This document shows positions 2,398 through 47,609 of a stretch of 64,000 nt of DNA, piece after piece. Source of the stretch: Cellulomonas wangsupingiae (GTDB lineage Bacteria; Actinomycetota; Actinomycetes; Actinomycetales; Cellulomonadaceae); contig NZ_CP101989.1 of assembly GCF_024508275.1 (NCBI RefSeq), positions 682,001 through 746,000 of the forward strand, written 5' to 3'. The position numbers were made by a program, and so were the translations under genes. The notes beneath the pieces are model-generated. The model made no database searches, was not told the origin of the DNA, and saw nothing but the letters and a program-made list of their open reading frames with translations. Position 1 is the stretch's first letter; each line of letters starts with the position of its first letter.

Positions 2398-2745
2398 ATG
2401 GCACAGAAGGTGCAGGTCCTGCTCGTCGACGACGTCGACGGTGGGACGGCGGACGAGACCGTGACGTTCGGTCTCGACGGCGTGACGTACGAGATCGACC
2501 TCACGTCCGAGAACGCCGCCAAGCTGCGTGACGCGTTCGCCCAGTGGGTCGCGAACGCCCGCAAGGTCAGTGGCCGCTCGGCCGCTCGCTCCTCCGCTCG
2601 CTCCTCGTCCTCGTCGTCGACGCGCACCGCGCGCTCGAACGAGGCGCAGGAGATCCGCGAGTGGGCGAAGGCCAACGGGTACCAGGTCTCCGAGCGGGGT
2701 CGCATCTCCGCGGAGGTCAAGAAGGCGTACGACGACGCTCACTGA
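2398..2745 (+). CDS. lsr2: Lsr2 family nucleoid-associated protein
   Basis: H-NS-like DNA bridging protein that binds AT-rich or horizontally acquired DNA and silences it. The 115-residue product starts MAQKVQVLLVDD, the classic Lsr2 dimerization domain (residues 1-60), then has a Ser/Arg-rich linker, and ends in the DNA-binding domain with EIREWAKANGYQVSERGRI. The RGR hook that inserts into the AT minor groove is present. The ATG at 2398 was chosen over an upstream in-frame ATG (2350) because the protein family begins exactly here. A strong hairpin terminator follows 44 nt after the stop. In an organism with so much GC, Lsr2 is a good candidate to silence AT-richer islands such as the ORF at 46211. 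Confidence 0.96.
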   Translation: MAQKVQVLLVDDVDGGTADETVTFGLDGVTYEIDLTSENAAKLRDAFAQWVANARKVSGRSAARSSARSSSSSSTRTARSNEAQEIREWAKANGYQVSERGRISAEVKKAYDDAH

Positions 2746-2788
2746 GCGTCGATGCCGCGTCGCGTTCGGGGGGACGTGACGCACCGGA

Positions 2789-2816
2789 GGGGCCGGCACC
2801 GCAAGGTGCCGGCCCC
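2789..2816 (+). terminator. Intrinsic terminator of lsr2
   Basis: A perfect 12-bp stem GGGGCCGGCACC with a GCAA tetraloop, followed by TTCG rather than a T run, as usual in high-GC actinobacteria. It lies 44 nt past the lsr2 stop. Confidence 0.75.
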
Positions 2817-2842
2817 TTCGCCGTCCCCGGGACGCCGTCCCG

Positions 2843-2952
2843 ACTGGATCGCACTCTCGCCTCCTGTCCCGAACTGGATGGCACTCTCACCCCTGGAGAG
2901 GGGAACCCACCCCACCCCGAAGACCCCCCCGGGCGTGAGAGAGCAATCCAGT
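2843..2952. repeat. Intergenic repeat cluster A (three copies of an 18-bp element)
   Basis: Three copies of ACTGGATNGNNCTCTCNC: 2843-2860 and 2873-2890 in plus orientation, 2935-2952 in minus orientation. They sit between the lsr2 terminator and the convergent xylB gene. The same element recurs at 11518-11601 and 30467-30723. No ORF or known mobile-element feature accompanies it. Confidence 0.8.
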
Positions 2953-2979
2953 CACCCCCCGCCCTCCGGGACGTGACGA

Positions 2980-3010
2980 AAGGGGCCGCACCCACCGGGT
3001 GCGGCCCCTT
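2980..3010 (-). terminator. Terminator of the xylAB side (may act in both directions)
   Basis: A perfect 14-bp stem AAGGGGCCGCACCC around a 3-nt ACC loop. It ends 10 bases short of the xylB stop codon and reads as a terminator on either strand, because the AA/TT ends are symmetric. Confidence 0.75.
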
Positions 3011-3020
3011 CGTCAGCGTG

Positions 3021-4460
3021 TCAGGCGGGGCGGTCGACCGTGAGGTCGCGGGCGGCGGCGTACTGCTCGCGCACGACGGGCGTCGGCTCGCCCGTCATGA
3101 CCTCGGCGTCGGAGGACGCCGACCACGACGGCGGCGCGTCCTGGCCGGAGAGGACCCACGCGGCCTGCCGCGCGGCACCGTCGGCGACGTACTCGCCGGG
3201 AGTCGGCACCTGCACGTCCACGCCCATGATCGACGGGATGATCCGGCGCACGGCCTCGGACTGCGCGCCGCCACCGATGAGGAACACGCGCTCGACGGGC
3301 ACGCCCACGGCGCGCATCGCGTCGATGCCGTCTGCGAGCGAGCAGAGCATGCCCTCGACCGCGGCGCGCGCGACGTGCGCGGGCGTCGTGTTGGCCAGGC
3401 GCATGCCGTGCAGGGCGCCGGTGGACATCGGCTTGTTCGGCGTGCGCTCGCCCTCGAGGTAGGGGACGTGCACGAGGCCGTCGGCGCCCGCCGGGGCGGA
3501 CAGCGCGAGCTCCGAGAGTCCCGGGTGGTCGACGCCGAGCATCCGGCACGCCGCGTCGAGCACGCGCGAGGCGTTGAGCGTGACCGCGAGCGGCAGGTAC
3601 GAGCCGGTCGCGTCGGCGAACCCGGTGACCAGCCCGGTGCCGTCCGCGATGGGCGCGGCCGAGATCGCCGACACCACGCCCGACGTGCCGAGCGACACCG
3701 CGACGTCACCCGGCAGCAGGCCGAGCGCGAGCGCGGCGGCGGCGTTGTCACCGGCGCCCGGGCCCAGCACCGGCTTCTTCGCGAACGCAGGCGCGACGGG
3801 GCCCGCCTCGTTGGCGGCGAGCACGCGCGGCAGGCGCGGCACGCTGCCGAGCGCCATCTCGAGCAGGTCCGTGCGGTAGTCCTCGGTGAACGGCGACCAG
3901 TAGCCCGTGCCCGACGCGTCGGACCGGTCGGTGATGAGCCCGTCGAACCCGACCTCGGCCATGCCGCCGGCGAGCTTCCACGTCAGCCAGTCGTGGGGGA
4001 GCGCCACGGCGGCGACGCGCGCGGCGTTCTCCGGCTCCGCGTCGCGCAGCCAGCGCAGCTTGGTGATCGTCAGCGACGCGACGGGCACCGAGCCGATCGC
4101 GTCGGCCCAGGCCTGCGCGCCGACCGTGACGTCGCCGTCGCCGAGCTCGGAGATCAGGTCACGCGCCGCCTGCGCGGAGCGCGTGTCGTTCCACAGCAGC
4201 GCCTCGCGGACGACCTCGCCGTCGGCGTCGAGCACGACCATGCCGTGCTGCTGCCCGCCGACGGAGATCGCCTCGACGTCGTCGAGGCCGCCGGCGTCCG
4301 CGATGGCCGCCTGCAGCGCGTCCCACCAGTGGTGCGGATGCACCTCGGTGCCCTCCGGGTGCCTGGCCCGGCCCTGCCGGACCAGCTCACCGGTCTGCGC
4401 GTCGCGCACGACCACCTTGCACGACTGCGTGGACGAGTCCACACCTGCCACGAGCGTCAT
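3021..4460 (-). CDS. xylB: Xylulokinase
   Basis: FGGY-family kinase that phosphorylates D-xylulose to xylulose 5-phosphate for entry into the pentose phosphate pathway. It is 479 aa, normal for the family. The N-terminal ATP/sugar fold begins [13 protein letters not shown], the QQHGMVVLD segment follows near residue 70, and the C-terminal FGGY half carries [10 protein letters not shown] and [13 protein letters not shown]. It starts with ATG at 4460, downstream of xylA on the same strand, but a hairpin lies in the 143-nt gap. Xylulokinase expression may therefore depend on readthrough or its own promoter. Together with xylA and the divergent ROK regulator it forms a standard xylose locus. Confidence 0.96.
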
Positions 4461-4558
4461 CGCGTGTGCTCCCTTGCCGAGGTGCCCGGACTGCCGGGCG
4501 TGGGGTGTCCGAGAGGGGATCGCGCCGGGCCGCTCGGACGTCGGGTGCCGGGACGGGC

Positions 4559-4591
4559 GACGCCCGGGGAGCGCGAGGCTCCCCGGGCGTC
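4559..4591 (-). terminator. Hairpin between xylA and xylB
   Basis: A perfect 14-bp stem GACGCCCGGGGAGC with a 5-nt loop lies 12 nt after the xylA stop. It could reduce xylB transcription relative to xylA or stabilise the xylA 3' end. Confidence 0.65.
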
Positions 4592-4603
4592 AGGTGCTGC
4601 TGG

Positions 4604-5794
4604 TCAGCCGCGCGCGCCCATGGCGTGCTCGACCGCGAGCTGGTTGAGGCGCACGAAGCCGTAGCCGTGCTTGGCCACGCCCTCGACGTCGAAGTCCTCG
4701 AACGCGGAACGGTCCGCGAGGAAGTCGGCGAGCGACTCGCCCTCGTTCAGCGTGGGCTTCGCGAGCTCGAAGACACCGGCGGCCTCCATGGCCTCCTGGA
4801 CCTCGGGGTCGGCGCGGAACGCCTGCGCCCGCTCCTTGAGCAGGATGTACGTCGACATGTTGGCGGCGGCCGAGGCCCACACGCCGTCGAAGTCCTCGGT
4901 GCGCGAGGGCTTGTAGTCGAAGTGGATCGGGCCGTCGTACTTGGGGCCGCCGCTGGGGAAGCCGTTCTCGACGAGGTCGACCGTCGCGAACGCGGAGAAC
5001 AGGTCGCCGTGGCCGAAGACCAGGTCCTGGTCGTACTTGATGCCACGCTGGCCGTTGAGGTCGATGTGGAAGAGCTTGTCCGCCCACAGCGCCTGCGCGA
5101 GGCCCGTCGTGTAGTTCAGGCCGGCCATCTGCTCGTGGCCCGTCTCCGGGTTGAGGCCGACGATGTCGCCGTGCTCGAGCTTGGCGATGAGGCCGAGCGC
5201 GTGCCCGATCGTCGGGAGCAGGATGTCGCCGCGGGGCTCGTTGGGCTTCGGCTCGATCGCGATGCGCAGGCCGTAGCCCTTCTCCTTGATGTACGCGGCG
5301 ACGGTGTCGATGCCGTCCGCGTACGCCTGGTGCGCGGCGTACAGGTCCTTGGCGGAGTCGTACTCGGCGCCCTCGCGGCCGCCCCACATGACGAACGTGT
5401 CGGCGTCCAGCGACGCGGCCAGGTCGACGTTGCGCAGGATCTTGCGCAGCGCGTAGCGGCGCACGCGGCGGTCGTTCGAGGTGAACGCGCCGTCCTTGAA
5501 GATCGGGTGCGTGAACGTGTTGGTCGTCACCATCTCGACCGTGATGCCGGTCTCGGCCAGCGCGCCGCGGAAGCGGTCGAGGATCTTCTCGCGCTCGGCG
5601 TCCGAGGAGCCGAAGGGCACCACGTCGTCGTCGTGGAAGGTCACGTGCGCGGCGCCGAGCTCGGCGAGCTTGTGCACGGACTCGACCGGGTCGAGCCACG
5701 GGCGGGTGGCGGCGCCGAACGGGTCCTGGGCGTTCCATCCGACGGTCCAGAGACCGAAGGAGAACTTGTCGTCAGGGGTGGGCTTGCGAACCAT
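4604..5794 (-). CDS. xylA: Xylose isomerase
   Basis: Interconverts D-xylose and D-xylulose with two divalent metals. The 396-aa length fits the class I (short, actinobacterial) group that includes commercial glucose isomerases. Visible signatures are the catalytic His region [11 protein letters not shown] (near residue 55), [15 protein letters not shown], the metal-binding [11 protein letters not shown], and the second metal site [15 protein letters not shown] near residue 245. The ATG at 5794 is preceded by GGAGGCC. It is the first gene of the xylAB unit and is controlled from the intergenic operator shared with xylR. Confidence 0.97.
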
Positions 5795-5856
5795 GGAGGC
5801 CTCCGCGTCGAGGGGGGACCGGGCGCACGGCTGTCGAGCGACCGGATTTTGTTCTC

Positions 5857-5891
5857 GGGATGAATTTATCCCGCGGAGTCGCTAGGGTCAA
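5857..5891 (-). promoter_or_regulatory. xylA promoter overlapped by a palindromic operator
   Basis: On the minus strand TTGACC (complement of 5886-5891) and TAAATT (complement of 5863-5868) are separated by exactly 17 bp, a near-consensus housekeeping promoter for xylA. The -10 is embedded in the 16-bp palindrome GGGATGAATTTATCCC (5857-5872). This is the obvious operator for the adjacent ROK regulator: binding would occlude the xylA -10. The AT-rich core stands out sharply from the surrounding GC-rich DNA. Confidence 0.75.
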
Positions 5892-5894
5892 GCC

Positions 5895-7241
5895 ATGCCG
5901 AGGCAGGACGACGCGCCGGACGACGCCCTGCGCGACGTCGCACCGCAGGGCTTCGCGACCCCTCGCCCCGCCGCCCTGACGCGTCTGCCCGACGCCCTGG
6001 CAGGCGCCCCCCGGACGCGTGAGGGACGTGCCGCCGAACGCGTGCCCGACCCCTCACGGGCCGCTCGGCAGGCGCAGATGCGCAGGCACAACCTCTCGGT
6101 GGCGCTCGCCCAGGTCGTCGACGCGAGGACCCCTCCCTCCCGCGCGCAGATCGCCGCCGCCACCGGCCTGGCTCGTGGCACCGTCACCGGGCTGGTCGAC
6201 GTGCTCATCGAGGCCGGACTGGTGCGTGAGCTCGACCCGGTCGTCGTGGCGCGTGCCGGACGGCCCGCGGTGCCGCTGGCCCCGACGCCGGGCCGCGTGG
6301 CCGGCGTCGGTATGGAGGTCAATGTCGACTACCTGGGCCTGCGGGCCGTCGACCTCGCGGGCGGCGTGCTGGTCGAGGCGGTCGAGCACGTGGACCTGCG
6401 GGGCAGCGACCCCGACGCGGTCCTCGACCGGCTCGCGATGCTCGCCGCGCCGGTGCTCGCCGCGCTCGCTGCCGACGGCGTCCGCGTCGCGGGCACCGCG
6501 CTCGCCCTGCCCGGCCTCGTCGACCGGATCACCGGCCCGCTGCGGTACGCGCCGAACCTCGGCTGGCGCGACGTCGACGTCGTCGCCCGCCTGGCCGCGC
6601 ACCCCGTCCTCGCGGACCTGCCGCCGCGCGTCGCCAACGAGGCGAACCTCGCCGCCCGTGCCGAGGCGCACGCGCGCCGCGCCGCCGTCGCGCCGTCGTT
6701 CCTGTACGTGTCGGGCGAGGTCGGTGTCGGTGGCGCGCTCGTCCTCGACGGCGAGATCTTCCTCGGCCGGCACGGCTGGAGCGGGGAGATCGGCCACGTC
6801 GTCGTCGACGGGGGAGCGGGCGGGACGCGGCCCGTGTCCCTGGAGCAGCACGCCGGTCAGGACGCGATCGCCCGGGCCGCGGGCCTGCCGGCCGGGGCGC
6901 CGTTCGCGGACGTCGTCGCCGCGCTGGACGCCGGGGACGCGCGCGCCCGCGACGCCGTCCGGGGCGCCGCGCGGTGGCTCGGGCTCGCGGTGGCGACCGT
7001 GGCCAACGTCGTCGACGTCAGCCAGGTCGTCCTGGGCGGCACGTTCGGCCTGGTCTTCGAGGACGTCCAGGACGTCGTCCGCGACGCGCTGGCCGACCGC
7101 GTGATCTTCGCGGACTGGTCGTCGCCGTCGGTGACGCGCGCCGCGGCGGGCGACTACCCGGCGATGACGGGCGGGGCGCTGGCGGTGCTGCGCACGGTGG
7201 TGGCGGACCCGACCCCGTGGTTCGCCACCACGACGGCCTGA
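5895..7241 (+). CDS. xylR: ROK-family transcriptional regulator of xylose genes (XylR type)
   Basis: Likely xylose-responsive repressor. After about 65 residues of low-complexity N terminus comes a winged HTH (SRAQIAAATGLARGTVTGLVDVLIEAGLV). This is followed by the ROK sugar-kinase-like fold with GVGMEVNVDYLGL, a VGVGGALVLDGEIF block and HGWSGEIGHVVVD. The kinase fold lacks a cysteine-rich CGCxGC zinc motif: the corresponding stretch is DGGAGGTRPVSLEQ, so zinc binding appears lost. The ATG at 5895 sits 12 nt after TAGGGT (5883-5888), suggesting a leaderless message whose -10 lies close to the xylA -35. The divergent arrangement with xylA and the shared operator support the role. It is 448 aa; the true N terminus could be shorter. 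Confidence 0.9.
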   Translation: MPRQDDAPDDALRDVAPQGFATPRPAALTRLPDALAGAPRTREGRAAERVPDPSRAARQAQMRRHNLSVALAQVVDARTPPSRAQIAAATGLARGTVTGLVDVLIEAGLVRELDPVVVARAGRPAVPLAPTPGRVAGVGMEVNVDYLGLRAVDLAGGVLVEAVEHVDLRGSDPDAVLDRLAMLAAPVLAALAADGVRVAGTALALPGLVDRITGPLRYAPNLGWRDVDVVARLAAHPVLADLPPRVANEANLAARAEAHARRAAVAPSFLYVSGEVGVGGALVLDGEIFLGRHGWSGEIGHVVVDGGAGGTRPVSLEQHAGQDAIARAAGLPAGAPFADVVAALDAGDARARDAVRGAARWLGLAVATVANVVDVSQVVLGGTFGLVFEDVQDVVRDALADRVIFADWSSPSVTRAAAGDYPAMTGGALAVLRTVVADPTPWFATTTA

Positions 7242-7312
7242 CCCCGACCGTCGCGACGGGTGGACCGCGGCGCGTCCGGGGCGGCGACCACGCGGGGGCG
7301 TCGACGGCTGCG

Positions 7313-7325
7313 TAGGGTCGGCCCG
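7313..7325 (+). promoter_or_regulatory. -10 element of a leaderless transcript (lactonase gene)
   Basis: TAGGGT at 7313-7318 lies 12 nt before the GTG start at 7325, the same spacing as at xylR and lysS. No Shine-Dalgarno is present. Confidence 0.55.
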
Positions 7326-8407
7326 TGAGCGCGACGACACCCCTGTGGATCGGCACCTTCCCGCGCGCCGGCATCGGCACGCAGGCCGGGCTCGGCGAGG
7401 GCGTGTGGCGCGTCGACCTCGACGAGACGACCGGTGCGCTGGGGGCGCCGCGGTTCGTCGTCGAGACCCCCGCGCCGACGTTCGTCGCGACGCACCCGTC
7501 GGGGCGCTGGCTGTACGCGGCGGGCGAGAGCGAGCCCGGGACGCTCACCGCGTTCGAGGTCGACGACGACGGCGGGCTGACCGCGCGCGCCGTCGTCGCG
7601 TCGGGCGGGTCCGGGCCGTGCCACCTGCTGGTGGTCGACGACGCGCTGTACGTCGCCAACTACGTCGACGGCGTGCTCGGCGTCGTGCCGCTGACGCCCG
7701 ACGGCGCGTTCGCCCCCGACGTCGTCGCGTCCGGGCGGCCCGCGCAGGCGTTCGGCCACACCGGCGCCGGCCCGGACGTCGACCGGCAGGAAGGCCCGCA
7801 CGCGCACTTCGTCGCCCTCACGCCGGACGGCCGTCACGTCGTCGTCGCCGATCTCGGCACCGACGAGCTGCGCCGCTACGCGCGCGGCGAGGACGGCCTG
7901 CTCACGCCGGACGGCCTCGCCGCGACGCTGGGCCCCGGGACGGGGCCGCGGCACGTCGTGTTCGCGTCCGACGGCTCGCGCCTGTACGTCGCCGGTGAGC
8001 TCGACGCGAGCGTCCACGTGCTGCTGTGGGACGCCGCCACCGCCACGGGCACCGCGGTGCAGCGGGTGCCGGCCGTCCCCGGGGAGGCGTCCGGCGACGG
8101 CGTGCGCCGCTCGCCGTCGCACGTCCTGCTCGACGGCGACCGGCTGGTCCTGGGCGTGCGCGCGCTGGGCCTGCGGGGTCCGGACGTCCTCAGCGTCTTC
8201 GACGTGCACGCCGACGGCTCGCTCGGCGACCCGCGCACGCAGCCGCTCGGCGGCCCGACGCCCCGGCACCTCGAGGTCGTCCACGGCTGGACGGTCGTCG
8301 CCCTGCAGGACGCGCACGCGGTCGTCGTGCACGACCCCCACGGTGCGCAGGTGTCGCGCGTCGAGGTGCGCTCGCCCGCGTGCGTCGTGCCGGTCGCGCC
8401 GCGCTGA
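7325..8407 (+). CDS. Lactonase-family seven-bladed beta-propeller protein
   Basis: 360 aa, related to the Pgl (YbhE-type) 6-phosphogluconolactonase / cycloisomerase family. It opens with the family's typical WIGTFPRAGIGTQAGLGEG, continues with repeating propeller blades (THPSGRWLYAAGE, VDDALYVANYVDG, LTPDGRHVVVADLGTDEL), and has the GPHAHFVALTPDG stretch that forms the active-site face. The family hydrolyses sugar lactones or similar esters; the exact substrate cannot be read from sequence. It follows xylR by 83 nt on the same strand and could act on aldonolactones arising from sugar oxidation, but that link is only positional. It converges with the TetR gene, with 7 nt between stops. Confidence 0.85.
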   Translation: MSATTPLWIGTFPRAGIGTQAGLGEGVWRVDLDETTGALGAPRFVVETPAPTFVATHPSGRWLYAAGESEPGTLTAFEVDDDGGLTARAVVASGGSGPCHLLVVDDALYVANYVDGVLGVVPLTPDGAFAPDVVASGRPAQAFGHTGAGPDVDRQEGPHAHFVALTPDGRHVVVADLGTDELRRYARGEDGLLTPDGLAATLGPGTGPRHVVFASDGSRLYVAGELDASVHVLLWDAATATGTAVQRVPAVPGEASGDGVRRSPSHVLLDGDRLVLGVRALGLRGPDVLSVFDVHADGSLGDPRTQPLGGPTPRHLEVVHGWTVVALQDAHAVVVHDPHGAQVSRVEVRSPACVVPVAPR

Positions 8408-8414
8408 CCGGTGC

Positions 8415-8975
8415 TCAGGCCGGGCTGAGCGCCATCTCGAGGGCCGTCGCGACGAGCGCGTGCCGATCGTCACCGGCCGGCAGGGTGTCCGCGAGCTGGT
8501 CGGCGCCGACGGCCGCGGCGAGGGAGATCACCGCGCGGCGGTGGGCGACGTCGGCCGGGATGCCGAGCTCGGTGAGCAGGCCGGTGACGTGCTCGACGCG
8601 GCGTGCGGTCACCCGGCGGACCGCGTCCTGGACGCCTTCGGCGGCGGCCTCCAGGTAGAGGCGCCGTTCCCCGCCGCGTCGGGGCCCGCGTGCGGCGACC
8701 TCGGCGAAGAGGGCGTGGAGCCGTGCGTGCGCGTCGCCGTCGTCGGCGGTGCGGGCGATGACCTCCTCGGTCTGCTCGGCCTCCCACCGCTCGACCACGG
8801 CGTCGACGAGCGCGCGGCGGTCGTCGAAGTGCCAGTAGAAGGAGCCCTTGGTGACGCCGAGCGTGCGGGCGAGCGCCTCGACGCGTACGCCGGCCAGTCC
8901 GTCGCTGCGGAACGCGGTGGTGGCGGCGTCGACCCACTGGTCGCGCGTGACGCGGGGGCGGGGTGACGGCGGCAC
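8415..8975 (-). CDS. TetR-family transcriptional regulator
   Basis: 186 aa. The N-terminal HTH runs from WVDAATTAFRSDGLAG to TLGVTKGSFYWHFDDRRALVDAVVERW, a textbook TetR domain. The C-terminal helical ligand domain has no recognisable relatives by eye. The GTG at 8975 was chosen because TAGCGT on the minus strand (8988-8983) precedes it by 13 nt, as at other leaderless genes here. It is divergent from the DUF2867 gene across a region dense in CCGTACGG palindromes, which also occur upstream of the flavin-binding protein at 9595. This regulator most likely represses itself and both neighbours. Confidence 0.92.
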   Translation of the reverse strand: MPPSPRPRVTRDQWVDAATTAFRSDGLAGVRVEALARTLGVTKGSFYWHFDDRRALVDAVVERWEAEQTEEVIARTADDGDAHARLHALFAEVAARGPRRGGERRLYLEAAAEGVQDAVRRVTARRVEHVTGLLTELGIPADVAHRRAVISLAAAVGADQLADTLPAGDDRHALVATALEMALSPA

Positions 8976-8978
8976 CGA

Positions 8979-9018
8979 CCGTACGCTACCGTACGGTTGA
9001 CCATACGCCACCGTACGG
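8979..9018. promoter_or_regulatory. TetR operator array (CCGTACGG palindromes)
   Basis: CCGTACGG occurs at 8989-8996 and 9011-9018, with a variant CCGTACGC at 8979-8986 and a further CATACG half-match between. Start-to-start distances are 10 and 22 bp, about one and two helical turns. The sites cover both -10 elements: TAGCGT for tetR on the minus strand and TACGGA (9014-9019) for the DUF2867 gene. Confidence 0.75.
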
Positions 9019-9026
9019 AGTCGCCC

Positions 9027-9530
9027 GTGACCGATCCGCCGCCCGTCACCGCGTCCGCCACGACGAGCGCCGACGCCGCTCCCACCTTCGTCTCGCTCGC
9101 GCTGCGCGACCTGCCGCGACCCGACTACTGCGACGTCCTCGTCACGCCCCTGCCTCCCGGCGCCGCCACCGCCCCCGCGGTGTGGGCCCGAGCCGTGTTC
9201 GACGTGCGCCACGGCCCGCGCTGGGTGCTCGCCCTGCTCCTCCTGCGTCAGGTCGCGGTGCGCCTCCTGGGGCTGGCACCCGCCCCTCGTGACACGTTCG
9301 CCGTGCGGGAGGTGCAGGGTGAGGAGGCCCTGCTCGCCTTCGACGACCGTCACCTGGACTTCCGCGTCGGCGTGGGCGTGGACGCCGACCGTGGCCTGCT
9401 GCGCGTCGTCACCGCGGTCCGGCTGCACGGCGTGCGCGGCCGCGTGTACTTCGGCCCCGTCCGACTCGCGCACCCGGTGGTGACGCGCGCGATGGTGCGC
9501 TCGGCCCTGCGGCGGTCGGCGGCCCCGTGA
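9027..9530 (+). CDS. DUF2867 domain protein
   Basis: 167 aa of unknown function. The body matches the DUF2867 pattern: an N-terminal segment with RPDYCDVLVTPLP, a WVLALLLLRQ helix, FAVREVQGEEALLAFDDRHLDFRV, and a C-terminal VYFGPVRLAHPVVTRAMVRSALRR. The conserved D-HLDFRV element is intact. The start GTG at 9027 lies 13 nt after TACGGA, inside the TetR operator array, so expression should be repressed by the divergent regulator. The family often sits near TetR regulators and small oxidoreductases, consistent with the next gene. No reaction can be assigned. Confidence 0.8.
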   Translation: MTDPPPVTASATTSADAAPTFVSLALRDLPRPDYCDVLVTPLPPGAATAPAVWARAVFDVRHGPRWVLALLLLRQVAVRLLGLAPAPRDTFAVREVQGEEALLAFDDRHLDFRVGVGVDADRGLLRVVTAVRLHGVRGRVYFGPVRLAHPVVTRAMVRSALRRSAAP

Positions 9531-9556
9531 CGCCGGGGTAGCGTCGCGCCCGGCAG

Positions 9557-9564
9557 CCGTACGG
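9557..9564 (+). promoter_or_regulatory. Additional CCGTACGG operator site
   Basis: A perfect CCGTACGG followed 5 bp later by a second CGTACG (9570-9575) lies 31 nt before the start of the flavin-binding protein gene. The motif equals the sites at the divergent tetR promoter, implying co-regulation. Confidence 0.6.
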
Positions 9565-9594
9565 CCGTCGTACGCCGCACCGTCGAGGAGGCCC

Positions 9595-10101
9595 ATGTCC
9601 CGCCCGCACGACGCCCCGACGCCCGTGACGTCCGAGCAGGTGTGGCGGACGCTCGCCCGCCAGCCGTTCCTCGTCGTCGCCATGGTCAACCGGCGCGGCG
9701 AGGGACGCAGCGTCGGCGTCAGCCCGGCCGTCGACGGCGACGACGTCTGGTTCGCCGCGACCGCGACCGACTGGAAGGTCGACCACCTGCGCCACCAGCC
9801 CGAGGTGTCGCTCACGGTGCCGGTGCGACGCGGCGGCGTGCTGGCGCTCGTCGCGCCGATCCCGCCCGCGACGATCACCTGCCGCGCCACCGCCCAGGTG
9901 CTGACCGTCGACGAGGCCCCGGACAAGGTGCGCCGCCGCCTCCTGCTCGGCCAGGACGTGGGGAAGGCGGCCGAGGCCGGGACCGTGATGGTCCGGCTGA
10001 CGCCCCACGGTGACTTCGTGACGTACGGCGTCGGGGTGTCCCTGAAGGCGATGATGGACACGCAGCGCGCCCGCGGGCGCGTCCCGGTCGCGCGCGGCTG
10101 A
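9595..10101 (+). CDS. Pyridoxamine 5'-phosphate oxidase-like (split-barrel flavin-binding) protein
   Basis: 168 aa with the split beta-barrel signature of the PPOX/FMN-binding family: VWRTLARQPFLVVAMVNRRGEGRSVGVSPAVDGDDVWFAA, then DWKVDHLRHQPEVSLTV, which covers the flavin or F420 contact strands. Family members bind FMN, F420 or heme and reduce small molecules; the cofactor here is not decidable by eye. The ATG at 9595 follows the ribosome-binding site GAGGAGGCCC. A CCGTACGG site upstream places it under the same TetR regulator as the DUF2867 gene. It may be a detoxifying reductase, but that is inference. Confidence 0.8.
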   Translation: MSRPHDAPTPVTSEQVWRTLARQPFLVVAMVNRRGEGRSVGVSPAVDGDDVWFAATATDWKVDHLRHQPEVSLTVPVRRGGVLALVAPIPPATITCRATAQVLTVDEAPDKVRRRLLLGQDVGKAAEAGTVMVRLTPHGDFVTYGVGVSLKAMMDTQRARGRVPVARG

Positions 10102-44003: not shown

Positions 44004-46214
44004 ATGGCAGTCGAGGCGGCCGCAGCAGCCGGCACACCCCAGGACCACGTGGGCCTGCTCGTCCGCAAGCGCGACGGCCGCACGCTGTCGTTCGACGCCG
44101 GGCGCATCCGGGCCGCGCTCGCCAAGGGGTTCGTCGAGGTCCACGGCGACCTCGACCCGCTGGCCGAGCTGACCATCGCCGACCTCGTGGAGCGCGCCGT
44201 CACCGAGCTGGAGCAGCGCTTCACGGGCGAGGTGCGGATCTACGAGATCCAGAACGTCGTCGAGCACACCCTGCTCGAGTCCGGCCAGTACGACGTGGCC
44301 CAGGCGTACATCGACTACCGGGTGCAGCGCGACCTCGCGCGCAGCAAGGCCCAGGACATCAACCACTCCATCGGCCAGCTCATCGGCAAGGACCGGTCGG
44401 TCGTCCACGAGAACGCCAACAAGGACAGCGACGTCTTCAACACCCAGCGCGACCTGACGGCGGGCGCGGTCAGCAAGGCGATCGGCCTGCGGATGCTCCC
44501 GCCGCACGTCGCGAACGCGCACACCAAGGGCGACATCCACTACCACGACCTCGACTACAGCCCCTACGCGCCGATGACGAACTGCTGCCTCATCGACTTC
44601 GCGACGATGCTCGGCCAGGGGTTCTGCATCGGCAACGCCGAGGTCGAGCCGCCCCGCTCGATCCAGACGGCCACGGCACAGATCACGCAGATCATCGCGA
44701 ACGTGTCCTCGAGCCAGTACGGCGGCTGCTCGGTGAACAGGATCGACGAGCTGCTCGCGCCCTACGCACGGCTGAACCACGAGAAGCACCTGGCCGACGC
44801 GCAGCGCTGGCTCGTCGACCCCGCGCTGCGCGAGGACTACGCGCGGGAGAAGACCTGCAAGGACATCCACGACGCCATGCAGAGCCTCGAGTACGAGATC
44901 AACACGCTGTTCACGTCCAACGGGCAGACGCCGTTCACGTCCGTGGGCTTCGGCCTGGGGACCGGGTGGCTGGAGCGGGAGATCCAGCGGGCGATCCTGC
45001 GCATCCGCATCGAGGGGCTGGGCAGCCAGAAGCGCACGGCGATCTTCCCCAAGCTCATCTTCACGCTGCGGCGGGGGGTGAACCTCGAGGCGCAGGACCC
45101 GAACTACGACATCAAGCAGCTCGCCGTGGCGTGCGCGACGAGGCGCATGTACCCCGACGTGCTCAGCTACGACAAGATCGTGGAGATCACGGGCAGCTTC
45201 AAGCTGCCCATGGGCTGCCGCTCGTTCCTGCCCGCCTGGACCGACGAGGACGGGCGGGACGTCGTCGACGGGCGCATGAACCTCGGTGTCGTCACGCTCA
45301 ACGTGCCGCGTGTCGCACTCGAGGCGAACGGTGACCAGGAGGTGTTCTGGCGGCTGCTGGAGGAGCGTCTGGAGACCGTGCACGACGCGCTGGTGTACCG
45401 CGTCGAGCGGTGCAAGCAGGCGGTGCCGGCCAACGCGCCGATCCTCTACGTGCACGGGGCGTTCGGGCGTCGGCTGCGGCTCGACGAGCCGGTCGACGCA
45501 CTGTTCCGCGACGGGCGGGCGACGGTCTCGCTGGGGTACATCGGCCTGTACGAGGCGGCGGCCGCGTTCTTCGGCGGCGCGTGGGAGTCGAACCCCGAGG
45601 CCAAGGAGTTCACCCTGCGCGTGCTGCGGACCCTGGCGGACCACGCCCAGGCCTGGACCGCGGAGCACGGCTACCGGTTCTCCGTCTACTCGACGCCCAG
45701 CGAGAGCCTGACCGACCGGTTCTGCCGCCTCGACACGCGCAAGTTCGGCGTCGTGCCCGACATCACCGACAAGGACTACTACACCAACAGCTTCCACTAC
45801 GACGTGCGCAAGAGCCCCACGCCGTTCGAGAAGCTCGACTTCGAGAAGGACTACGCCCCGCTGACGTCGGGCGGGTTCATCCACTACTGCGAGTACCCCG
45901 TGCTGCAGCAGAACCCCAAGGCGCTCGAGGCCGTGTGGGACTACGCCTACGACCGGGTGGGCTACCTGGGCACCAACACGCCCATCGACCACTGCCTGGC
46001 GTGCGACTTCCGCGGGGACTTCGACCCGACCGAGAACGGGTTCTCCTGCCCGCGGTGCGGCAACACGGACCCGGCGACGTGCGACGTCGTCAAGCGCACG
46101 TGCGGGTACCTGGGCAATCCCATGGTCCGTCAGTGGGTCCACGGCCGCTCAGAAGAACTCAAGAGCCGCGTCAAGCACATGGCGTCGTCGGATCCGGATA
46201 CAATTGTTCAGTGA
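44004..46214 (+). CDS. nrdD: Anaerobic (class III) ribonucleoside-triphosphate reductase
   Basis: Glycyl-radical enzyme that reduces NTPs to dNTPs without oxygen; 736 aa. The N-terminal ATP-cone begins LLVRKRDGRTLSFDAGRI, the catalytic barrel contains YSPYAPMTNCCLIDF, and the C terminus carries a zinc ribbon (CLACDF and CPRCGN) and the radical site RTCGYLGNP with Gly701. The ATG at 44004 follows GAGGAG. The last about nine residues (SSDPDTIVQ) extend past the usual RVKHM end. The stop overlaps the start of the zinc-ribbon ORF by 4 nt. NrdR boxes upstream suggest control by dATP/ATP levels. Confidence 0.97.
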   Translation: MAVEAAAAAGTPQDHVGLLVRKRDGRTLSFDAGRIRAALAKGFVEVHGDLDPLAELTIADLVERAVTELEQRFTGEVRIYEIQNVVEHTLLESGQYDVAQAYIDYRVQRDLARSKAQDINHSIGQLIGKDRSVVHENANKDSDVFNTQRDLTAGAVSKAIGLRMLPPHVANAHTKGDIHYHDLDYSPYAPMTNCCLIDFATMLGQGFCIGNAEVEPPRSIQTATAQITQIIANVSSSQYGGCSVNRIDELLAPYARLNHEKHLADAQRWLVDPALREDYAREKTCKDIHDAMQSLEYEINTLFTSNGQTPFTSVGFGLGTGWLEREIQRAILRIRIEGLGSQKRTAIFPKLIFTLRRGVNLEAQDPNYDIKQLAVACATRRMYPDVLSYDKIVEITGSFKLPMGCRSFLPAWTDEDGRDVVDGRMNLGVVTLNVPRVALEANGDQEVFWRLLEERLETVHDALVYRVERCKQAVPANAPILYVHGAFGRRLRLDEPVDALFRDGRATVSLGYIGLYEAAAAFFGGAWESNPEAKEFTLRVLRTLADHAQAWTAEHGYRFSVYSTPSESLTDRFCRLDTRKFGVVPDITDKDYYTNSFHYDVRKSPTPFEKLDFEKDYAPLTSGGFIHYCEYPVLQQNPKALEAVWDYAYDRVGYLGTNTPIDHCLACDFRGDFDPTENGFSCPRCGNTDPATCDVVKRTCGYLGNPMVRQWVHGRSEELKSRVKHMASSDPDTIVQ
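46199..46204 (+). promoter_or_regulatory. -10-like hexamer before the zinc-ribbon ORF
   Basis: TACAAT (46199-46204), a near-perfect -10, lies at the end of nrdD and 12 nt before the GTG at 46211. It fits the leaderless spacing seen elsewhere and could drive the inserted ORF separately. Confidence 0.45.
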
Positions 46215-47001
46215 AATCGCCTGTCGCGGGCGGACGGCCCCGGGAATGTGTTCGGTGTGGTTCATCATTCGCGCCTCGGTCGCTGACGGCGACAACGTGC
46301 TCCCCTGCCTGCAGAACGGCTCGACAGCGGGAGGCGACGCAGCGGTGGCGGGGCCGGCAGCCGCCGAGCCCTCCTGGTCGCCGAACCTGCGTCGCGTGCT
46401 CGGCGCCGTTCGAGTCGGTGCGGTTCCGGGCGTACTGCTCGTCAGGCTGCAGGGCGGCGGGCAGGTCTGCTTCCCGGGTCAGGGAGGCAGAGAAGTCCAT
46501 GGTCCTGCGCGACAGGCGTGCGGTCGTCCGCGATTGCGACGGCTGCGGCATGAGCTTCGGTGTGCCGAGTGCGCAGCAGGCACTGCGAGTGAGGTTCTGC
46601 GGCGCGAGCTGCCGCGTGGCCGCAAAGAATGCAAGACGGCGCGCAGTGGAGCGCTACGTGACCTGCGACATGTGTGGGGCGCGCCTCGCAGCCAGAGGGC
46701 GACAGCGGAGATGTGCGGCGCATGCCGTTCCCTGCAGTTTTTGCGATTCTCCGGTGCAGGTGTCGAGCAAGAAGGAAGTTGGGTCACGGCGTTCCGGGGT
46801 GAAGACGTACTGCACGAGAAGAAGCGCCTGCTCGCCATGCACCAGCTCGGGGTGCGCGTCGTCGACATCTGGCAGGACGACATCGAGTCCGGGGCATACC
46901 GCGGCATCGTCGACCGCGAGGTCGAGGCAGCGATGAGGGCCGAGAAGGTGCTGCCGTCGGCGCCTCACGTGGCGGTGCCGGAAGAACGAGGTGACCGCTG
47001 A
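46211..47001 (+). pseudogene. Multi-zinc-ribbon ORF broken by a -1 frameshift, between nrdD and nrdG
   Basis: From the GTG at 46211 the frame encodes five zinc-ribbon-like modules: C13xxC16/C30xxxC34, C60xxC63/C76xxxC80, C109xxC112/C130xxxC134, C152xxC155/C168, C175xxC178/C201. After Cys201 (46811-46813) it runs into low-complexity Ser/Thr and stops at 46936, while the -1 frame continues as HEKKRLLAMHQLGVRVVD, IWQDDIESGAYRG, and IVDREVEAAMRAEK to a stop at 46999-47001 that overlaps the nrdG ATG. Loss of one C (TGCCAC to TGCAC) at about 46813 would explain it. Base composition and codon use are AT-richer than in nrdD and nrdG. The shape recalls phage or homing-type endonucleases, but no catalytic motif is certain. 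Confidence 0.7.
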
Positions 47002-47609
47002 TGGTGTACCGGACCCCGCGTCCCGGGCAGTGGCGGGCGCAGGACCTCAGCCACGACCGCGTCGCGGACTACAAGCCGTTCGTCATGGTCGACGGCGAGG
47101 GCGTGCGCTGCGCGCTGTACGTCAGCGGGTGCACCTTCGCCTGCGACGGCTGCTTCAACCGGGCGGCGTGGAGCTTCCGGTACGGGCGCCCGTACGACGA
47201 CGCGCTCGAGGAGCGGATCCTCGCGGACCTGCACCACGAGGCCGTCCAAGGGCTGTCCCTGCTCGGCGGCGAGCCGTTCCTCAACACCGGGGTGTGCCTG
47301 CGCGTCGTGCGCCGCCTGCGCGCCGAGCTCGGCCGGACCAAGGACGTGTGGTGCTGGACGGGGTACACCTTCGAGCAGCTGCTCGCCGAGGTCGACGCCG
47401 GCCAGCACGACAAGGCGGCGCTGCTCGCCGAGGTCGACGTGCTGGTCGACGGCCCGTTCGACGCGGGCCGCAAGGACCTGACCCTGGCGTTCCGGGGGAG
47501 CGCCAACCAGCGCGTCCTGGACGCGCGCCGGTCGCTCGCGCAGCGCCGGGCCGTGCCGTGGGCAGGGGCGGAGGCGCCCGGCGCGACCGACCTGCTCGCC
47601 ACCGCCTGA
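47001..47609 (+). CDS. nrdG: Anaerobic ribonucleotide reductase activating enzyme (radical SAM)
   Basis: Installs the glycyl radical on NrdD using a [4Fe-4S] cluster and S-adenosylmethionine. It is 202 aa. The cluster motif CTFACDGC gives Cys44, Cys48 and Cys51 (CxxxCxxC); GEGVRCALYVSGC precedes it and LSLLGGEPFL is the SAM-binding GGE motif. The ATG at 47001 overlaps the stop of the zinc-ribbon ORF, so it may once have been translationally coupled to an intact upstream gene. It ends 7 nt before the convergent nfo stop. Confidence 0.96.
   Translation: MVYRTPRPGQWRAQDLSHDRVADYKPFVMVDGEGVRCALYVSGCTFACDGCFNRAAWSFRYGRPYDDALEERILADLHHEAVQGLSLLGGEPFLNTGVCLRVVRRLRAELGRTKDVWCWTGYTFEQLLAEVDAGQHDKAALLAEVDVLVDGPFDAGRKDLTLAFRGSANQRVLDARRSLAQRRAVPWAGAEAPGATDLLATA

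What the first reader, a model, noticed from the sequence alone, without database searches (positions are those of the whole stretch)
46211..47001. Frameshifted multi-zinc-ribbon gene wedged between nrdD and nrdG
Between nrdD and nrdG lies a 791-bp interval whose first frame encodes five Cys-pair zinc-ribbon modules (CxxC/CxxxC). Its -1 frame continues from about 46813 as HEKKRLLAMHQLGVRVVD to a stop that overlaps the nrdG ATG. Both ends use tight overlaps (GTGA with the nrdD stop, TGATG with nrdG), so the element was translationally fitted into the operon. 791 mod 3 = 2 agrees with a single lost base. It is AT-richer than its neighbours and carries its own TACAAT -10-like hexamer. Free-standing endonucleases near RNR genes are known in phages (T4 mobE between nrdA and nrdB), so a decayed homing-type nuclease is one reading. 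A class III RNR accessory protein is another.
Basis: partly seen in the sequence, partly recalled or inferred. Interest (0 to 1): 0.78.

Follow-up and report, generated by a model that had tools for sequence, protein, structure and literature searches.

The report
Decayed homing-nuclease-like insert between nrdD and nrdG
A broken, zinc-finger-rich gene that looks like the remains of a selfish DNA-cutting gene sits between the two genes for oxygen-free DNA-precursor synthesis, and the end of the first of those genes looks as if it had been replaced with foreign sequence.

Summary
Between nrdD (stop 46212-46214) and nrdG (ATG 47001) lies an extra, frame-broken ORF. It is an insertion: in 66 of 72 other nrdD-nrdG loci read from the same family the genes touch, and the ORF is in 1 of 81 genomes of the genus, its own. 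There third-position GC falls from 698/716 to 22/32 codons, and a tail nearly invariant in 21 genus relatives is different. A piece of frame B weakly matches the end of the core of Hef-like/EDxHD homing endonucleases (E 6e-4 to 0.04 by profile). An open Hef-like endonuclease with DUF4379 zinc fingers lies between nrdD and nrdG in one genome of a sister genus, another just after nrdG in a second. Best reading: remnant of a free-standing homing endonuclease that entered with conversion of the nrdD 3' end and then decayed. T4 mobC at nrdG/nrdD is the known parallel; new member of a known kind. No direct relative was found, and a sequencing error at the frame break is not excluded.

The parts
44004..46214 (+). 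nrdD, anaerobic ribonucleoside-triphosphate reductase (ATP cone, NRDD, glycyl radical domain); start at ATG 44004 is inferred
   Evidence: Pfam PF13597 E 3e-185, PF01228, PF03477; NCBIfam TIGR02487 and NF006732
46092..46121 (+). last conserved nrdD block KRTCGYLGNP with the glycyl-radical motif (motif name recalled); the native/foreign junction lies in its last codons
   Evidence: this ten-codon block is 100% identical to 21 relatives; the three blocks after it are 50, 62 and 17% identical
46116..46214 (+). changed 3' end of nrdD, foreign codon composition
   Evidence: GC3 22 of 32 codons against 698 of 716 upstream, Fisher P 3.6e-8; at most 12 of 20 residues identical to any of 75 aligned tails (75 of 94 loci tried; 19 lacked the anchor and were dropped)
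46211..46936 (+). frame A of the insert: GTG overlapping the nrdD stop; three complete and two partial Cys units up to about 46813; stop at 46936
   Evidence: phrog_1271 (HNH endonuclease) E 2.5e-10 over zinc-knuckle residues 9-91 only
46735..47001 (+). piece of frame B that resembles the end of the Hef-like/EDxHD nuclease core; its left edge is my choice; TGA 46999-47001 overlaps nrdG ATG
   Evidence: profile A2 18.3 bits, E 6e-4, best of 5657 sequences; A1 12.6 bits, E 0.034; 98-sequence profile 13.1 bits, E 0.044
47001..47609 (+). nrdG, NrdD-activating radical SAM protein
   Evidence: TIGR02491 E 8.7e-49; Pfam PF13353

Best explanation
The interval is the remnant of a free-standing (intronless) homing endonuclease gene, probably of the Hef-like/EDxHD kind, with an N-terminal array of zinc fingers. 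It entered the nrdD-nrdG junction by break repair, which also converted the last ~32 codons of nrdD, from just after the glycyl-radical motif, to a diverged donor tail. It sits between the genes with stop/start overlaps (GTGA, TGATG) and has decayed: the frame is broken and the first half of the nuclease core is not recognisable. Shown: insertion relative to family loci, composition break inside nrdD, changed tail, zinc-knuckle units, frame difference, and open Hef-like endonucleases in nrdDG of a sister genus. Inferred: nuclease ancestry of this ORF, entry by homing, co-conversion as the cause of the changed tail, loss of activity, and translational coupling (read from the overlaps only).
For: Empty site: in 21 of 21 genus loci and 45 of 51 further family loci nrdD and nrdG touch. 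Frame A found in 1 of 81 genus genomes, its own. GC3 break and tail change right after GYLGNP. Three zinc units, reached by 1 of 20000 shuffles; phrog_1271 E 2.5e-10. The frame B piece ranks first against 656 window segments and 5000-10000 shuffles with three core profiles. G215 (L112) has an open Hef-like endonuclease of at least 670 aa between nrdD and nrdG, with five DUF4379 stretches, phrog_559 E 1e-65, phrog_3339 'homing endonuclease' E 5e-55, ending ATGA in the nrdG frame; G211 (L111) has another just after nrdG. In T4, free-standing mobC lies at nrdG/nrdD, lacks its own promoter and overlaps the upstream ORF; co-conversion of flanks is documented for other free-standing T4 homing genes (PMC2988022, passages; mobC activity is listed there as not determined).
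Against: No sequence relative of the ORF: none in three protein searches (where only the 7995 best-sharing candidates were scored, 23 candidates), none confirmed in IMG/VR, none in phages (DNA 85) except two hits at E 3 and E 10. The nuclease match is short and weak: in the 98-sequence test one shuffle reaches 9.9 bits and the untrimmed open segment holding frame B only 9.3, below that shuffle; the invariant Asp and His of the core are not seen. The predicted structure of frame B alone is all helix, without the strand expected. The zinc fingers differ from the DUF4379 type of the sister genus. phrog_1271 rings in 11 of 14 control genomes, and its own-genome search listed another place, not this ORF. 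Composition in 46215-46394 favours frame B over A. No donor of the nrdD tail was found. Diverged tails also occur among the relatives compared: the 5th percentile of pairwise identities is 8 of 20.
Confidence: 0.64

Rival explanations
1. The gene is intact in the organism and the frame break is a sequencing or assembly error; it would then be a whole gene, probably of the same ancestry.
For: One genome only; the ambiguous stretch has a short homopolymer in GC-rich DNA; composition alternates between frames in 46695-46814.
Against: The first half of the core is not recognisable in either frame, and few residues separate the last full Cys unit from the core end (inference).
Confidence: 0.15
2. 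A zinc-finger protein, such as a class III RNR accessory or regulator, recruited into the operon; frame A is the product and frame B is accidental.
For: Zinc units are clear and the nuclease match is weak.
Against: Absent from 66 of 72 family loci whose genes touch; no relative found; frame B fits coding composition far better than A in 46815-46934.
Confidence: 0.1
3. Two separate overlapping genes, one in each frame.
For: Both frames are open over most of the interval.
Against: I see no convincing start for a separate frame B gene; long open frames are common in 74% GC DNA; one switch fits composition better than either frame alone.
Confidence: 0.04
4. The changed nrdD tail is an independent older recombination or fast divergence, not part of the entry of the insert.
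For: No donor for tail or insert; they differ in GC (56.5% for 46130-46214 and 68.6%).
Against: The two changes adjoin; the insert is in this genome alone among 81 of the genus and none of 75 aligned tails comes closer than 12 of 20 residues.
Confidence: 0.25

Closest known systems
Hef-like / EDxHD (Vsr-fold) free-standing homing endonucleases (phrog_3339, phrog_559; L112 in G215, L084 in LR756500)
   Same: zinc fingers ahead of a nuclease core; frame B weakly resembles the end of the core; same operon in a sister genus; overlap with nrdG
   Different: window ORF is frame-broken, lacks a recognisable first half of the core, and ends about 25 residues after it (of 118 member ORFs, even among the 20 with the shortest ends 14 continue 100-168 residues); zinc units are C2C-C3C, not DUF4379; no direct relative
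T4 mobC (HNH)
   Same: free-standing gene at nrdG/nrdD, overlaps the upstream ORF, no promoter of its own (PMC2988022, passages)
   Different: phage, HNH family; activity listed as not determined and target as unknown there; no sequence relation shown here
T4 mobE
   Same: free-standing homing gene in a ribonucleotide reductase operon, stop/start overlap
   Different: class I nrdA/nrdB, HNH family
T4 I-TevII in the nrdD intron
   Same: targets nrdD
   Different: intron-encoded GIY-YIG; no Rfam family matched here

Membership tests
Free-standing homing endonuclease gene | Optional insertion: present in one genome, empty junction in relatives | tested here: met
   66 of 72 other family nrdDG loci abut; frame A in 1 of 81 genus genomes
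Free-standing homing endonuclease gene | Recognisable nuclease catalytic motif | tested here: not met
   only the end of a core is matched, weakly (E 6e-4 to 0.044); invariant Asp and His not seen
Free-standing homing endonuclease gene | Flanking co-conversion | tested here: inconclusive
   nrdD tail changed up to the insert, but no donor known
Free-standing homing endonuclease gene | Site-specific cleavage of the empty allele | not testable with these tools
   needs protein; gene is broken
Hef-like / EDxHD family | Full core with its conserved acidic and His residues | tested here: not met
Hef-like / EDxHD family | Zinc-finger or DUF7487 N-terminal region | tested here: inconclusive
   zinc units present but not DUF4379 or DUF7487
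Group I intron with homing gene | Intron RNA around the gene | tested here: not met
   no Rfam match at E up to 1 in 45900-47200
HNH endonuclease (phrog_1271) | HNH motif | tested here: not met
   match confined to zinc knuckles, residues 9-91; no Pfam HNH family

The most novel reading that the evidence does not exclude
A mobile endonuclease of a so far unseen architecture (an array of C2C-C3C treble clefs joined to an EDxHD-like core) targets the DNA that encodes the glycyl-radical loop of NrdD and brings its own replacement 3' end of nrdD. One event thus restores the host enzyme, destroys the cleavage site and couples the element to nrdG.
Probability: 0.25. Interest if true: 0.6.

Novelty: new member of a known kind. 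Interest (0 to 1): 0.38.

Why it matters
The homing genes in ribonucleotide reductase operons that I met in print are from phages (PMC2988022, PMC10448857, PMC3653736, passages). Here the class III operon of a bacterial family shows an insert at the junction that T4 mobC occupies, a changed NrdD C-terminus right behind the glycyl-radical motif, and open Hef-like endonucleases in the same operon of a sister genus. That gives a natural set of empty, occupied and decayed alleles in which homing and co-conversion on bacterial chromosomes could be tested.

Tried and rejected
Close relatives of the ORF: none in the 5.8-billion protein set, none confirmed in IMG/VR, none in phages but two hits at E 3 and E 10, and in plasmids only a 32-base match. 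A motif scan for G..RV.DIW.D in IMG/VR gave two unrelated loci. Structure of frame B alone: all-helix model, mean pLDDT 72.9 with the other four models at 42.7-51.2, and no PDB match at E 10; this is against the expected strand-helix end of a Vsr fold, but single-sequence models are poor, so I give it little weight. Donor of the nrdD tail: pattern P..RQWVHGR gave 0 viral contigs (30, with a longer form of the pattern) and 27 genome contigs, none with a NrdD match; 26 of 396 phylum genomes, own included, matched the tail query, 19 loci besides the own one were fetched, and the 10 tails I read were of an ordinary type (26, 36); 1 of 394 class genomes, its own, at E 1e-6 (101); the nearest phage tail shares 12 of 20 residues, as do many relatives. 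Introns: no Rfam match. Order-level search with the core profile: 13 of 347 genomes, by eye mostly DUF559-like proteins (my label) and one zinc-finger member. The 19 phylum loci gave no tblastn match to frames A or B.

Literature: I saw search listings and passages of PMC2988022, PMC10448857 and PMC3653736; no paper whole. Sandegren 2005 on SegH and Hef is not held; what I say of it is from passages and the reference list of PMC2988022. 'homing endonuclease' + 'nrdG' + 'actinobacteria' gave 0 papers; 'Cellulomonas' + 'nrdD' gave 1, on bifidobacterial reductases by its title. I know of no report of this case within those searches.

Full report
What is there. nrdD (44004-46214, start inferred) and nrdG (47001-47609) are ordinary class III ribonucleotide reductase genes. 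Between them, frame A runs from GTG 46211, which overlaps the nrdD stop, to 46936. It holds three complete C-x2-C...C-x3-C units (1 of 20000 shuffles reaches three) and two partial ones. Frame B is open to TGA 46999-47001, which overlaps the nrdG ATG. Frame A has a PHROG match to the zinc-knuckle part of an HNH endonuclease family at E 2.5e-10; that profile rings in 11 of 14 control genomes, and its own-genome search listed another place instead of this ORF, so it speaks for zinc knuckles, not for a nuclease.

It is an insertion. A search with frame A gave 1 of 81 genomes of the genus, its own, and 2 of 221 of the family, the second a weak match across two stops at E 4.6e-4. nrdG occurs in 72 of 220 family genomes at E 1e-30, own included. 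I read the junction in 72 other nrdDG loci. In 21 of 21 loci of the genus the genes touch: -4 to +8 in the 16 where the script found a start, overlapping stop and start visible in the printed sequence of the other five. In 45 of 51 further loci they touch as well, at -14 to +7 extrapolated. The six exceptions are L112 (Hef-like endonuclease between the genes), L111 (94 nt; an endonuclease follows nrdG), L128 (a second nrdDG copy of one genome with a radical-SAM-like gene, by eye), and L173-L175 (114-141 nt extrapolated, not examined further).

The foreign stretch begins inside nrdD. The ten-codon block KRTCGYLGNP is 100% identical to the 21 genus relatives and the blocks before it are 65-100%; the next three are 50, 62 and 17%, and nucleotide identity goes from 0.86 to 0.52, 0.63 and 0.26. 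Third-position GC is 698 of 716 codons before 46113, counting some codons ahead of the start, and 22 of 32 from 46116 (Fisher P 3.6e-8). The residues after GYLGNP are QQRPMVHGRHVEISSRVKH or nearly so in the 21 genus loci, but MVRQWVHGRSEELKSRVKHM here. Of 94 loci tried, 75 had the anchor; none shares more than 12 of these 20 residues with the window (median 11). Among the relatives the pairwise median is 17 and the 5th percentile 8, so diverged tails do exist among them. Among the 22 genus loci compared, only the window's has such a tail behind a body close to the genus. The tail keeps VHGR, RVKH and other common residues, so it may still work. nrdG has native composition almost from its first codons. 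The foreign block thus runs from about 46115 to about 47000.

Nuclease ancestry. A chance-level phage hit of frame B (E 10) led to L084, a phage protein with DUF7487 and a Vsr-like core. Profiles of that core were scored against a trimmed piece of frame B, 656 open segments of the window, and shuffles. A1 (18 sequences): 12.2-12.6 bits, E 0.034-0.045; a shorter 62-residue piece scored 10.2 bits, E 0.19. A2 (8 sequences, three from the bacterial family): 18.3 bits, E 6e-4, best of 5000 shuffles 7.8. A 98-sequence profile: 13.1 bits, E 0.044, best of 10000 shuffles 9.9, with the untrimmed open segment at 9.3. The trimmed piece ranked first each time, but the trimming is mine, the tests share sequences, and I had noticed the resemblance beforehand: suggestive, not proof. 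Only the end of the core is matched; the invariant Asp and His are not seen. The model of frame B alone is all helix and gives no help.

Sister genomes. A1 hit 2 of 220 family genomes, both of one genus. In G215 the endonuclease lies between nrdD and nrdG and ends in ATGA in the nrdG frame; in G211 it follows nrdG and seems short at its N-terminus. The G215 protein has five DUF4379 stretches and matches phrog_559 and phrog_3339 'homing endonuclease'. Of the 12 phage relatives listed (of 455 records), 10 are annotated homing endonuclease, one of these as Hef-like, and 2 as hypothetical protein. G211 has a third copy on another contig, beside an ORF that looks intein-like to me.

Mechanism. The simplest account is homing into the nrdD-nrdG junction with conversion of the flanking nrdD end, then decay. 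For T4 a review lists free-standing homing genes at nrdG/nrdD (mobC, activity not determined) and nrdA/nrdB (mobE), both without promoters of their own and overlapping upstream ORFs, and describes co-conversion of flanks (PMC2988022, passages). No promoter-like or terminator-like site was found here. Whether the break is biological cannot be decided from one genome. Composition allows a switch between 46669 and 46779, while the Cys pattern suits frame A up to about 46813; and in 46215-46394 composition favours frame B, although the Cys units there are in frame A.

Verdict. A real feature, probably a decayed homing endonuclease remnant with a changed nrdD end: a new member of a known kind, moderately interesting, with membership in a named nuclease family not established.

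Noticed in passing
L112 (G215:C10:7500-15500, minus strand), about 2645-4654: Open Hef-like endonuclease with five DUF4379 stretches between nrdD and nrdG, its stop overlapping an in-frame ATG of nrdG (ATGA).
   Followed up: partly
L111 (G211:C8:57000-65000, minus strand): Related endonuclease directly after nrdG, apparently short at its N-terminus; it may be a decaying copy.
   Followed up: partly
L113 (G211:C40:1-9000): A further Hef-like copy next to an ORF that looks intein-like (my reading of the translation).
   Followed up: no
L128 (G022:C1:3620847-3626116): Second nrdDG copy in one genome of the genus with a radical-SAM-like gene of about 1 kb between nrdD and nrdG (by eye).
   Followed up: partly
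L037 (G297:C9): About 800-nt nrdD-nrdG gap holding what looks like a toxin-antitoxin pair (from translation only).
   Followed up: no
window 46988-47003: nrdG has a ribosome-binding-like GAGGTGA (46988-46994) inside the end of the insert, so its translation may be less dependent on nrdD than in relatives.
   Followed up: no
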